Assembly: GCA_902810705.1 (NCBI GenBank)
Contig: CADDYU010000005.1
Coordinates: forward strand, 1 to 60,904
Length of the DNA: 60,904 nt
Direction: 5' to 3'
From: Methylococcaceae bacterium
GTDB lineage: Bacteria; Pseudomonadota; Gammaproteobacteria; Methylococcales; Methylococcaceae
Positions 15,601 to 19,807 of the stretch are shown one piece after another. Each line of letters begins with the position of its first letter. The stretch's first letter is position 1. A program made the translations under genes and the position numbers. A model generated the notes under the pieces. That model searched no databases and was not told where the DNA came from. It saw only the letters and a program-made list of their open reading frames with translations.

Positions 15601-15991
15601 GGGTTATGTCGGCTTGGAAGATATCATTAGCGTAAGTGGTACGGACGATACGGCATATTATTGGCGAGTGTGATCCGACCCTATAATTCTTACATTATTA
15701 GGCGAGGCGGAGTGGTTTGGAAGATTCTCTGAACCTGTGCGTCCCGCAGTCCGCGTTCATTTGCGTAATCGGGGGACTCTGGGTATCTTGATCGCTCCTC
15801 GACGCGAGGCTTGCCGGCTTTCGGCCGGCTTAAAAGCTCAGAGACATCCGTCGAAATGACGGATGCGACGCCATCCTCCGCGCTTGAGGTGGCGTTTGCT
15901 GCGTTCAGACCGCTACGTTAAAGAAGCAGGGCGGACGGGGCTCGAGCTGTGGCATGGGCTTCCGCCAGTCCGTTCATTTTCAGGAGATCTC
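15601..15991. other. Intergenic region with two adjacent hairpins before the Kdo hydroxylase gene
   Basis: About 390 nt with no gene. Two perfect hairpins lie close together: GCCGGC-TTTCG-GCCGGC (15813-15829) and CATCCGTC-GAAAT-GACGGATG (15844-15864). Neither has a T-run, so they are not simple terminators. They may form a structured leader for the gene at 15992. Confidence 0.45.
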
Positions 15992-16897
15992 GTGAGCCTG
16001 GACATCATTCACGAATGCACCGTCGATACTTGGGAACCCGCTGGCCAAGGCACCGAGAGTCTGGAGACCGTGCTCGAAGCCGGAAAGATCCTTTATTGCC
16101 CAAGCTTGGAATTTCAGTTCGAAGCCTCGGAAAAGCCTTTTTTGTCCGAGCAATGGGCGGACGGCAAGGCCAAGAACATCAGCTTCCGCGGCCCTTCATC
16201 CGAGCTTGGCGGGGCTCGTGGCAGCCCGCAAGAAATCATTCGGCTCAAGGCAATCCTGGCCCGTTATGCCGACGCATCTACCCGATTGGTGAAAGGGCTC
16301 TTTCCGCACTATGCGGAATTCCTTCGGCGGGGGTTCACTTCTTATCGGACCGCCGCCGTAGAGGGGCGCAACACGAGTTGGCGCAAGGACGATTCGCGTC
16401 TTCATGTGGATTCGTTTCCTTCCAACCCGACGGGAGGCGTCCGGCTGCTCCGGGTTTTCTCCAACGTCAATCCGCATGGACAACCGAGGGTCTGGCGGGT
16501 GGGCGAGCCGTTCGAGGGCTTCGCGGCGAAGTTTTTTCCGAAGGTCTCCAAGCCCTGGCCCGGGTCGGCCTGGCTGTTGGAGAAGCTTGGCGTCACCAAA
16601 TCGAGGCGCACTCGATACGACCACTACATGGGGCAACTCCATGATCTGGTCAAGGCCGACAGCGCCTATCAAAACTCGGCGCCGCAGCAATCCTTCGCCT
16701 TTCCCGCGGGCACCTCCTGGATCGTGTTTTCGGACCAGGTTCTGCACGCCGCCATGGCCGGCCAGTTCCTGCTCGAGCAAACCTTTTACCTCGATCCCGA
16801 CCACCTGGTCCGGCCAGATCAAGCGCCGCTGAGAGTATTGGAACGGCTGGCCGGCGGCGCTTTGGTCGAGGGCCGAGCGCATTTTCGCCATTCCTAG
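15992..16897 (+). CDS. kdoO: Kdo hydroxylase family protein (KdoO-like Fe(II)/2-oxoglutarate dioxygenase)
   Basis: A 301-residue protein with the signature segment LHVDSFPSNPTGGVRLLRVF, in which His138 and Asp140 form the expected HxD iron site. A distal His (H252 in FSDQVLHAAMAGQ) completes the facial triad. KdoO proteins hydroxylate C3 of the Kdo sugar in Kdo2-lipid A using Fe(II), 2-oxoglutarate and oxygen. The GTG at 15992 follows AGGAG by 6 nt and fits the family length; an upstream in-frame ATG at 15863 would add a poorly conserved Arg-rich N-terminus. It lies within 6 kb of lpxK and kdsB, so this is a lipid A/Kdo neighbourhood. Confidence 0.88.
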   Translation: MSLDIIHECTVDTWEPAGQGTESLETVLEAGKILYCPSLEFQFEASEKPFLSEQWADGKAKNISFRGPSSELGGARGSPQEIIRLKAILARYADASTRLVKGLFPHYAEFLRRGFTSYRTAAVEGRNTSWRKDDSRLHVDSFPSNPTGGVRLLRVFSNVNPHGQPRVWRVGEPFEGFAAKFFPKVSKPWPGSAWLLEKLGVTKSRRTRYDHYMGQLHDLVKADSAYQNSAPQQSFAFPAGTSWIVFSDQVLHAAMAGQFLLEQTFYLDPDHLVRPDQAPLRVLERLAGGALVEGRAHFRHS

Positions 16898-17063
16898 CCC
16901 AGTCTGTTGCGGTCTGCATCAATCAAGCTTTGGCCAGGGGTATTTTCGCAGGTTGGCGGTACAATTCAGAGTTGCCGGAAACGCAGGCCGGCATCATGCC
17001 GTTCGCGAAGCCCGCCCACCGATGAGGTGATATCCGCTGACTTGCTCTTCCCGAGGTGTGCCC

Positions 17064-17666
17064 ATGTTTCGGAAGAAAGCCCTGACCCGGATCGAGATCG
17101 CCGCTGTGCTCGCCGAGCGCTGGAGCGGCCGGGCCTACGATCCGGACCGTCCCGTCGAGCGGGACAAACTGCTCGCCCTGTTGGAAGCCGCCCGCTGGGC
17201 ACCCTCCTGTTTCGGAGATCAGCCTTGGCGTTACTTGATTTGGGAGCGGCTCGCCGAGCCCGAACGCTGGCGCCGGGCGCTCGGCTGCCTGACGGAAGGC
17301 AACCGGAGGTGGGCTTTCCGGGCGCCGCTTTTGCTACTGGCGTGCGCCGATAGCCGGTTCAGGGATGGGCGGCCCAATCCCTGGGGACCCTACGACACGG
17401 GTGCCGCCAGCATGAGCCTGGCGATCGAGGCCATGGCCCTGGGGCTGATGGTCCATCAGATGGGCGGCTTCGACGCCGGAAAGATCCGCGCCGAATTCGC
17501 CATTCCCGAGCGCTACGAGTGCATGGCGATGATGACCGTAGGATATCAGCTGCCGGAAGACCAGATTCCCGATGAACTCAAGGAACGGGAATATGCGCCG
17601 CGCTCCCGCCGCCCCCTCGCCGAGAGTTTTTTCATGGGGGAATGGGGTAATTCCTTTGAACCCTGA
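17064..17666 (+). CDS. Nitroreductase family protein
   Basis: A 200-residue FMN-dependent oxidoreductase of normal size for the family. The N-terminal RWSGRAYDPDRPV segment and ARWAPSCFGDQPWRY are the usual FMN-contact regions, followed by MSLAIEAMALGLMVHQMGGF and a PEDQIPDELKERE end. The substrate is unknown; relatives reduce nitro groups, quinones or flavins. The ATG at 17064 lies 7 nt after GAGG; a GTG at 17058 is too close to it. Confidence 0.9.
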   Translation: MFRKKALTRIEIAAVLAERWSGRAYDPDRPVERDKLLALLEAARWAPSCFGDQPWRYLIWERLAEPERWRRALGCLTEGNRRWAFRAPLLLLACADSRFRDGRPNPWGPYDTGAASMSLAIEAMALGLMVHQMGGFDAGKIRAEFAIPERYECMAMMTVGYQLPEDQIPDELKEREYAPRSRRPLAESFFMGEWGNSFEP

Positions 17667-17824: not shown

Positions 17825-19807
17825 ATGTATCGAATTCTTCTCAAGCTCGTCGAACGGGGGCTGCAAAAACAGGTTCCCGCTATCGGGCTCGGCATTTTCC
17901 GGATCGCCTTCGGGCTGGTCGCTCTGCAGGAAATCCTATTCCTGTTCTATTTTCGGCACTTGATTTTCGATCCGGTGCCTTTCATCGATAGGGCTTCGCC
18001 CATACTGCATTTTTTTCTCCTGGTTTGGATGGCCGCCGCCGCTTGCCTCACGATGGGATATCGCACCCGCCAGGCGGCGCTTTCGAATTACCTTTTCTGG
18101 GTGGTTTTCGTGGTATTCACTCCCTTATGGCAGGACTTCGACGGCGGCTTCGACCAGCTCATGACCGGCACGGGCTTTCTCCTGATCTTTCTACCTTCCG
18201 AACGAGCCTTGTCGCTCGACAATCTCCGGCTCAAGCTGCGCTATTCCACCCCGGCCTGCCGTTACCAGCCGCCCTATGACATCACGGTGCTCGCTTATTA
18301 TCTACCCCTCGCCATCAGCCTGGGCCTTTTGTATTTCGATTCCGGGCTGCACAAGTTGTCCTCGGAATTCTGGCGGAACGGCATGGGTGCCTGGCTGCCG
18401 TCCACCATGCCTTACTACATGTCGGCCATCGACATGAGCCCGCTCTTGAATAGCAAGTACCTGGAGATGGGTATCGGCTATGCCATCATCATTTTCCAGC
18501 TGGTGTTTATTTTTCTGTTCTGGTTCCGTCGATTTCGGGTTCCCTTGCTGCTCGCCGGAGCCGGTTTTCATACCGGTATCGTCCTATCGCTGAATATTTA
18601 TCCGTTCGGCTTCGCGATGCTGGCGCATTACGGTTTGATGGTGCCTTTGGCCTGGTGGCGGAGATTGCGTGGAATCTTGAAGCTCGGGCGGCCGGCCTTG
18701 ACGGTGTTTTACGATCAGGAATGCCCTTTGTGCAATCGGACGGTCATTTTCGTCGAGCATTTCGATCTCTTCCGGGCGGTCGATTTCAAGGGGTTGCAGG
18801 CGCATGCAGGGGACTGCCGGCAATTGGCCTCCATTCCGGAAGAAGTCCTATTGAAGGACTTATATGCCGTGGATAGGGCCGGGCGCGTCTATACCGGTCT
18901 GGATACCTATATCCGCATCCTTCTCAAAATGGTTTATACCGCTCCCTTAGGGTGGCTGCTGCGGCTGCCGGGAATCCACCACTGGGCGAGGCGGGTTTAC
19001 CAGAACATCGCGGATAACCGGCAGCGGCTGACCTGTGGGGAGGCCTGCGCGATGGCTGCGGTCCCGGTCTTCGAGGATGAGCGCCCTTTCGCGAAATTCC
19101 ACGCCCGCTATGCCGGCACCGACCGGCAGATCGCCCAGCGCATCGCCAAATTCCTGGTGCTCATCCTCTTGCTTCAGCTCAACAGCACTCTTCATTACGG
19201 GATTTTGTACCGCTGGGCAGGCACCCGGCCGAGCGATCCGGCGCTGGCTGTTCTCGATCAGGTCAGTGATTCGGTCATCAACTTTTCCCACGCCTTCCTG
19301 GGGATTTCGCCGCACGCCCTGTACATGCACGACCATTTCGCCGGCTACCACCGCATTTTCGCCCTCGCCTACCGGGACAAAACCGGCCGGGAAACCTGGC
19401 TGCCTTTTGTCAACCGGGAGGGCCGCCTGCTCGCGCCCAACTGGGGCCGGGTTCAATCCATGTGGGCCAATGTCGCCATCACCTCGCACCCGAGCCGCGA
19501 CCGGCTGGAAAAGTTCATGAAGAAGGTGACCGCCTTCTACGGCGCCGAGCTTGGGCTAGGCCTCGCGGATGCGGAGTTCGTCATCAAGATGAAGGAAGTC
19601 CGGGTGCCGATGGACTGGGAATACGACTTGCGTCGCGACAATCTCTCGAAGTCATGGCGCGATGTCGGTATAGCCGTGTGGCGTCGGGACGGAATGTACC
19701 TGGATTTCGCCGGATTCGAAGCGGATCGTCCGAGTGTGGCCGGGGCGCGCGGAGAGCGGGATCGCCCAATGGCCGAATCGCCTCCCCTGCCAATTCCCTC
19801 CCGGTAA
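17825..19807 (+). CDS. HTTM domain (vitamin K-dependent gamma-carboxylase-like) fused to DCC thiol-disulfide oxidoreductase domain
   Basis: A 660-residue membrane protein. Residues 1-285 form a multi-span HTTM region, including YFDSGLHKLSSEFWRNGMGA, where K177 aligns by eye with the catalytic lysine region (AGVKKLDADW) of animal gamma-glutamyl carboxylase. Residues 292-400 form a DCC/YuxK-like domain with the diagnostic FYDQECPLCN motif (C300, C303), later LYAVDRAGRVYTGLDTYI. A further membrane segment (about 440-455) and a C-terminal soluble domain of unknown fold (to 660) follow. The HTTM fold is known from vitamin K-dependent carboxylases; DCC proteins are thioredoxin-like. Joined, they suggest a redox-coupled membrane modification enzyme, but the substrate is unknown. 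Confidence 0.85.
   Translation: MYRILLKLVERGLQKQVPAIGLGIFRIAFGLVALQEILFLFYFRHLIFDPVPFIDRASPILHFFLLVWMAAAACLTMGYRTRQAALSNYLFWVVFVVFTPLWQDFDGGFDQLMTGTGFLLIFLPSERALSLDNLRLKLRYSTPACRYQPPYDITVLAYYLPLAISLGLLYFDSGLHKLSSEFWRNGMGAWLPSTMPYYMSAIDMSPLLNSKYLEMGIGYAIIIFQLVFIFLFWFRRFRVPLLLAGAGFHTGIVLSLNIYPFGFAMLAHYGLMVPLAWWRRLRGILKLGRPALTVFYDQECPLCNRTVIFVEHFDLFRAVDFKGLQAHAGDCRQLASIPEEVLLKDLYAVDRAGRVYTGLDTYIRILLKMVYTAPLGWLLRLPGIHHWARRVYQNIADNRQRLTCGEACAMAAVPVFEDERPFAKFHARYAGTDRQIAQRIAKFLVLILLLQLNSTLHYGILYRWAGTRPSDPALAVLDQVSDSVINFSHAFLGISPHALYMHDHFAGYHRIFALAYRDKTGRETWLPFVNREGRLLAPNWGRVQSMWANVAITSHPSRDRLEKFMKKVTAFYGAELGLGLADAEFVIKMKEVRVPMDWEYDLRRDNLSKSWRDVGIAVWRRDGMYLDFAGFEADRPSVAGARGERDRPMAESPPLPIPSR

What the first reader, a model, noticed from the sequence alone, without database searches (positions are those of the whole stretch)
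17825..19807. HTTM carboxylase-like domain fused to a DCC thiol oxidoreductase
One polypeptide joins a gamma-carboxylase-type membrane domain, with a lysine (K177) where the animal enzyme has its catalytic lysine, to a thioredoxin-like DCC domain with CPLC. In animals the carboxylase works with a separate thiol-dependent reductase (VKOR). The fusion hints at a bacterial self-contained redox-coupled system, with an added C-terminal domain of unknown role.
Basis: partly seen in the sequence, partly recalled or inferred. Interest (0 to 1): 0.65.

Follow-up and report, generated by a model that had tools for sequence, protein, structure and literature searches.

The report
Methanotroph carboxylase-like membrane protein with DCC insert
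This is an uncharacterised membrane protein, carried by nearly all gammaproteobacterial methane-eating bacteria and by few others, that is built like the vitamin K carboxylase of animals but lacks its glutamate-gripping residues and carries a thioredoxin-like (DCC) domain on the other side of the membrane, so it is probably a quinol-using envelope enzyme of unknown substrate and not a self-contained carboxylase-reductase.

Summary
The 660-residue ORF and its HTTM (PF05090) and DCC1-like (PF04134) domains are real. Structure search returns only human GGCX as significant hits, and profile alignments equate K177 with GGCX catalytic Lys218. However, that lysine is also present in the two HTTM-only proteins examined, so it does not mark a carboxylase. 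The Glu-pocket residues N159/H160 are replaced by an almost invariant DFDGGFD motif, and the VKGC lumenal domain is not detectable. The DCC domain sits in the TM8-TM9 loop, predicted cytoplasmic, opposite K177 and the C-terminal domain. CPLC is kept in 46 of 48 aligned homologues, but was lost at least twice while K177 and the C-terminal domain stayed. VKOR does not co-occur. The proposed carboxylase-plus-reductase unit is therefore not supported. What is notable is the distribution: 223 of 251 genomes of the host order (Methylococcales) have it, in 46 of 48 genera. It is missing from two families whose monooxygenase hits score lower. A 398-genome phylum sample found no other carrier. The gene lies within about 5 kb of pmoA in several lineages and near a secreted lipocalin-like gene in two families. 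Best reading: a periplasm-facing quinol-dependent protein-modifying enzyme of gammaproteobacterial methanotrophs; mechanism inferred, not shown.

The parts
17825..19807 (+). HTTM-DCC-CTD gene, 660 aa, with stop codon
   Evidence: ORF; orthologues full length in 223 of 251 order genomes
17882..18649 (+). HTTM membrane domain, TM1-TM8 (residues 20-275)
   Evidence: Pfam PF05090; AF2 helices; hhalign to VKGC E 3e-11; Foldseek to GGCX
18134..18154 (+). DFDGGFD motif (residues 104-110), replacing the N158-N159-H160 Glu-pocket segment of GGCX
   Evidence: alignment
18353..18355 (+). K177, aligned with GGCX catalytic base Lys218; invariant in 48 of 48
18569..18571 (+). H249, aligned with GGCX H287; invariant
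18704..19036 (+). DCC1-like thioredoxin-type domain (residues 294-404), inserted in the TM8-TM9 loop, predicted cytoplasmic
   Evidence: Pfam PF04134; charge pattern
18722..18733 (+). CPLC (C300-C303)
   Evidence: both cysteines in 46 of 48; lost in L126 and L127; CPLS in L143
19034..19048 (+). second cysteine pair C404/C408 at the end of the DCC domain
   Evidence: lost in the same sequences that lose CPLC; similar C-terminal pairs in several stand-alone DCC proteins
19133..19204 (+). TM9 (residues 437-460) with invariant Q451
   Evidence: VKGC has an invariant Gln in its TM9, equivalence by inspection
19301..19699 (+). C-terminal domain (residues 493-625), predicted periplasmic, no Pfam family
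19733..19804 (+). low-confidence C-terminal tail (residues 637-660)

Best explanation
The protein is a divergent member of the HTTM/vitamin K carboxylase superfamily with a nine-helix GGCX-like membrane core, a DCC domain inserted in the cytoplasmic TM8-TM9 loop, and its own periplasmic C-terminal domain. Most likely mechanism (inferred): a membrane quinol binds in the HTTM pocket near the outer face, K177 deprotonates it, reaction with O2 drives an oxidative or base-dependent modification of a periplasmic or secreted protein held by the C-terminal domain, and the cytoplasmic CPLC domain is a dispensable thiol-redox input (sensor or electron relay). It serves the methane-oxidation lifestyle; the secreted lipocalin-like protein encoded next to it in two families is a candidate partner or substrate. 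Shown: architecture, K177-K218 equivalence, loss of N159/H160, repeated loss of the cysteines, distribution, linkage. Inferred: topology, quinol use, substrate modification, role in methanotrophy.
For: All 15 Foldseek hits at E<=0.001 are GGCX. hhalign to bacterial VKGC: E 3e-11 and 1.3e-17 with the Bacteroidota homologues; that VKGC profile hits GGCX at 2e-64. K177=K218, H249=H287, F261=F299; F286 is F or L. K218 deprotonates vitamin K hydroquinone (PMC12589487, PMC9146348). Inside loops carry more K+R than outside loops, placing DCC inside and K177 and the CTD outside. Distribution: 223/251 in the order, 1/398 in the phylum sample, that one being the query genome. pmoA lies about 3-5 kb away in genera g22, g454, g447 and g16 (coordinates; pmoBAC order). 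The lipocalin-like gene is divergent and immediately upstream in 38 loci, is also nearby in family f2, and is absent from the same two families. An HTTM protein is encoded in a linaridin (modified peptide) cluster (PMC9927463).
Against: No quinone specificity or substrate can be read from sequence. W223 and the tail-tunnel glycines of GGCX are not kept, so the pocket may bind something else or nothing. Linkage to pmo may be one inherited ancestral arrangement. In the window itself the neighbours are KdoO, a nitroreductase and LpxK, not pmo. The distribution follows phylogeny. Some Bacteroidota carry the same architecture without pmoA.
Confidence: 0.4

Rival explanations
1. One reading: a bacterial gamma-carboxylase fused to its own VKOR-like reductase; the DCC domain reduces the quinone (epoxide) made by the HTTM domain.
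For: Fusion and K177 = Lys218.
Against: N159/H160 absent; DCC predicted on the opposite side of the membrane; cysteines lost repeatedly; no VKGC lumenal domain found; no consistent VKOR.
Confidence: 0.06
2. The HTTM part is a non-catalytic quinone-binding or structural scaffold that anchors a cytoplasmic thiol-redox sensor and transmits its state to the periplasmic domain, in the manner proposed for DoxX-type redox complexes (analogy from general knowledge).
For: K177 and H249 are shared by HTTM-only proteins, so they may be structural; DCC inside, CTD outside; L151 also scores weakly as DoxX.
Against: Invariance of K177 (48/48) where the cysteines vary suggests that the lysine is the more important site; lineages without any CxxC keep the rest.
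Confidence: 0.28
3. A trans-membrane electron carrier: the cytoplasmic DCC thiols reduce a quinone or metal site in the HTTM domain, which passes electrons to a periplasmic target.
For: DCC and K177 on opposite faces; four cysteines tend to be kept or lost together.
Against: No conserved cysteine pair in the membrane to relay electrons; cysteines dispensable in at least two lineages.
Confidence: 0.14
4. An LPS- or envelope-related enzyme, because the window neighbours are KdoO, LpxK and KdsB.
For: Neighbours in the window; the Adhaeribacter homologue lies in a glycan cluster.
Against: Neighbours are not conserved: KdoO recurs next to it in only one other locus, and most neighbours are on the opposite strand.
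Confidence: 0.07

Closest known systems
Vitamin K-dependent gamma-glutamyl carboxylase (human GGCX) and bacterial VKGC proteins (PF05090 + PF22777)
   Same: HTTM membrane core; Lys218, H287 and F299 equivalents; TM9; a C-terminal domain after TM9
   Different: no N159/H160 equivalents; no detectable VKGC lumenal domain; DCC domain inserted between TM8 and TM9; no VKOR partner
DCC1-like thiol-disulfide oxidoreductases (PF04134)
   Same: D..CPLC motif; a second C-terminal cysteine pair as in several stand-alone members
   Different: embedded in a membrane protein; cysteines lost in several lineages
Bacteroidota HTTM-CTD proteins (L139, L141, L143-L146)
   Same: HTTM core and C-terminal domain; L139 also has an intact DCC domain
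   Different: L141 has no DCC domain, L144-L146 no cysteines there, L143 CPLS; L139, L141 and L143 carry a His in the TM4 segment; host genomes G332 and G450 have no pmoA
SdpB / TIGR04033 and linaridin HTTM proteins
   Same: HTTM-type membrane domain
   Different: 17.8 bits against a cut-off of 178.4; no DCC domain

Membership tests
HTTM (PF05090) | profile score over curated cut-off | tested here: met
   36.1 vs 27.7 bits
DCC1-like (PF04134) | profile score over curated cut-off | tested here: met
   79.5 vs 27.8 bits
DCC1-like (PF04134) | D..CxxC active-site motif kept in orthologues | tested here: inconclusive
   both cysteines in 46 of 48 sequences; lost in at least 2 methanotroph lineages
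Vitamin K-dependent carboxylase (GGCX/VKGC) | GGCX-like membrane fold | tested here: met
   Foldseek E 4.1e-7, all 15 significant hits GGCX
Vitamin K-dependent carboxylase (GGCX/VKGC) | catalytic base Lys218 | tested here: met
   K177, by hhalign, hmmsearch and MAFFT
Vitamin K-dependent carboxylase (GGCX/VKGC) | Glu-pocket N159 and H160 | tested here: not met
   G108 and F109
Vitamin K-dependent carboxylase (GGCX/VKGC) | VKGC lumenal / propeptide-binding domain (PF22777) | tested here: not met
   no Pfam match; no hhalign match of the CTD; CTD model without a significant PDB hit
Vitamin K-dependent carboxylase (GGCX/VKGC) | C99-C450 disulfide | tested here: not met
   C99 position is Phe
Vitamin K-dependent carboxylase (GGCX/VKGC) | forms Gla in a protein substrate | not testable with these tools
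   needs biochemistry
SdpB (TIGR04033) | score over curated cut-off | tested here: not met
   17.8 vs 178.4 bits

The most novel reading that the evidence does not exclude
A third functional class of the vitamin K carboxylase superfamily: a quinol- and O2-driven, periplasm-facing enzyme, specific to gammaproteobacterial methanotrophs and gated by a cytoplasmic thiol domain, that modifies a protein needed for methane oxidation (for example a pMMO component or the linked lipocalin-like protein).
Probability: 0.15. Interest if true: 0.85.

Novelty: new variant of a known kind. Interest (0 to 1): 0.5.

Why it matters
A single-copy, unnamed gene kept by almost every gammaproteobacterial methanotroph genome sampled, including animal symbionts, is likely to matter for aerobic methane oxidation, yet no paper found here describes it. 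It also shows that the vitamin K carboxylase scaffold, including its catalytic lysine, was reused without the glutamate site. It gives a concrete knock-out target in tractable strains such as Methylotuvimicrobium buryatense, where it lies next to pmoCAB.

Tried and rejected
LPS role from the window neighbourhood: rejected, neighbours not conserved. Operon with the nitroreductase: not seen in relatives. Carboxylase/VKOR unit: see verdict. Homology of the C-terminal domain to the GGCX propeptide-binding domain: not shown by hhalign or Foldseek (best hits insignificant); only the position after TM9 matches. Direct sequence search of the PDB found no relative; GGCX was reached only through bacterial VKGC profiles and the fold search. 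Strict association with methane monooxygenase: not strict; four order genomes with true-looking pmoA are not among the listed carriers of the gene (probably incomplete MAGs), and several carriers, the window's own genome included, show no pmoA in the assembly. Literature searches on HTTM, DUF393 or DCC in methanotrophs found nothing relevant.

Full report
Observation. The ORF at 17825-19807 (+) encodes 660 aa. Pfam finds HTTM (res 22-277) and DCC1-like (294-404), both over their curated cut-offs, and nothing beyond. Orthologues keep the whole architecture.

What it is. A scan of named genomes and genome surveys place the protein in the order Methylococcales: 223 of 251 order genomes, 202 of 217 of good quality, 46 of 48 genera. 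The genomes without it are mainly families f6 and f7, whose PF02461 hits score lower (best E about 1e-85 to 1e-110, against mostly 1e-114 or better elsewhere). In a 398-genome sample of the phylum only the query genome has it. One genome outside the order (G233) has both the protein and a pmoA; its copy nests among Methylococcaceae sequences, so it is a transfer or a binning error. Full-length Bacteroidota homologues exist (Adhaeribacter L139, 32% identity; L143), with relatives that lack DCC (L141) or have no cysteines in that region (L144-L146).

Relation to the carboxylase. The AF2 model finds GGCX and nothing else at E<=0.001. Bacterial VKGC proteins (PF22777, common in the Bacteroidia sample) bridge the gap: they match GGCX at 2e-64 and our family by hhalign over the membrane domain. 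A joint alignment gives K177=K218, H249=H287, F261=F299. The published GGCX structure assigns K218 as the base for the hydroquinone and N159, H160 and Y395 as Glu ligands (PMC12589487). N159/H160 fall in our DFDGGFD segment and are not kept. The same lysine is present in the HTTM-only proteins L147 and L151, so it is a mark of the superfamily, not of carboxylation; the divergent HTTM-DCC protein L051 lacks it.

Topology. Nine membrane helices are predicted. Loops on the N-terminal side carry more K+R (0.11-0.38 per residue) than the short loops on the other side (0-0.10). The DCC domain lies between TM8 and TM9, in the former set, i.e. cytoplasmic; K177 at the end of TM5 and the C-terminal domain are periplasmic. 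This is inference, but it agrees with GGCX, whose domain after TM9 is lumenal.

The DCC domain is accessory. Both cysteine pairs are gone in L126/L027 and in L127, which the tree separates (starred branches force two changes; long branches are flagged), while K177 and the C-terminal domain are kept. Among the CPLC-bearing methanotroph sequences the C-terminal and HTTM domains (63% and 62% pairwise identity) are better conserved than DCC (55%).

Context. The gene is mostly stand-alone: upstream neighbours are on the opposite strand in 69 of 92 cases and downstream ones in 63 of 90. A divergent secreted lipocalin-like gene (Pfam Lipocalin_4 just over cut-off in one member) is the immediate upstream neighbour in 38 loci, is also near it in family f2 together with a small membrane protein, occurs in 50 of 61 relatives including the window's genome, and is missing from the same f6 and f7 genomes. 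From the coordinates, pmoA lies 3.1-5.3 kb away in G043, G1049, G1073, G1113, G1115 (g22), G1076, G1077, G1198 (g454), G1199 (g447) and G044 (g16, another family), and 11-25 kb away in G1134, G1058, G1029 and G1139; in many others it is far. The loci show pmoBAC convergent with the gene. This may be one ancestral arrangement kept by descent.

Mechanism. The conserved lysine and aromatic pocket, an outer-face site, and a periplasmic domain fit a quinol/O2-driven modification of an exported protein; this is my best guess at 0.4. The absence of the Glu pocket and of VKOR (6 of 61 relatives over the cut-off) argue against Gla formation. Methylococcales use ubiquinones (general knowledge, not tested), which would be a further difference from vitamin K.

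Novelty. Fusions of HTTM and DCC are visible to Pfam, so the parts are known, but no functional description was found in the open literature searched. I rate it a new variant of the HTTM/VKGC kind; the near-universal presence in one group of methanotrophs is the interesting part.

Noticed in passing
window 28595-58801: Low-GC exopolysaccharide cluster (Wzy-like ligase/polymerase, beta-barrel porin, Wzz/tyrosine-kinase-like protein, nucleotidyl transferase, glycosyltransferases, pectate-lyase-like protein); GC falls from about 0.63 to 0.41-0.58 at about 26 kb.
   Followed up: partly
window 15863-16897 and 17058-17666: Kdo hydroxylase KdoO (409 bits, equivalog cut-off 300) followed by a nitroreductase, upstream of the gene; KdoO recurs near the gene in only one other locus (L060).
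   Followed up: partly
L022:8375-8758 and homologues; own genome G000:C91:1609-1965: Secreted lipocalin-like protein, divergent neighbour of the gene in 38 loci, with the same absence from families f6 and f7 as the gene; candidate partner or substrate.
   Followed up: partly
L021:3519-3938 and homologues: Small membrane protein of about 140 aa next to metH and the lipocalin-like gene in 60 loci, no Pfam family; a similar small membrane protein is in family f2.
   Followed up: no
L126:4744-8141 (-): Two B12-binding radical SAM proteins (DUF4070) lie between the gene and pmoBAC in the lineage that lost the DCC cysteines.
   Followed up: no
L051:895-2766 (-): A different gammaproteobacterial membrane protein with HTTM-like and DCC regions and a C-terminal domain, which lacks the conserved lysine.
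   Followed up: no
L061: MAG titled Methyloversatilis universalis carries an orthologue that groups with the window protein, on a contig of the same length as one of G030, which is placed in the window's own family; the title is probably a misnomer.
   Followed up: no
L143:1498-3390: Bacteroidota fusion with CPLS in place of CPLC and the second pair also halved (CTESN): one cysteine of each pair lost together.
   Followed up: no
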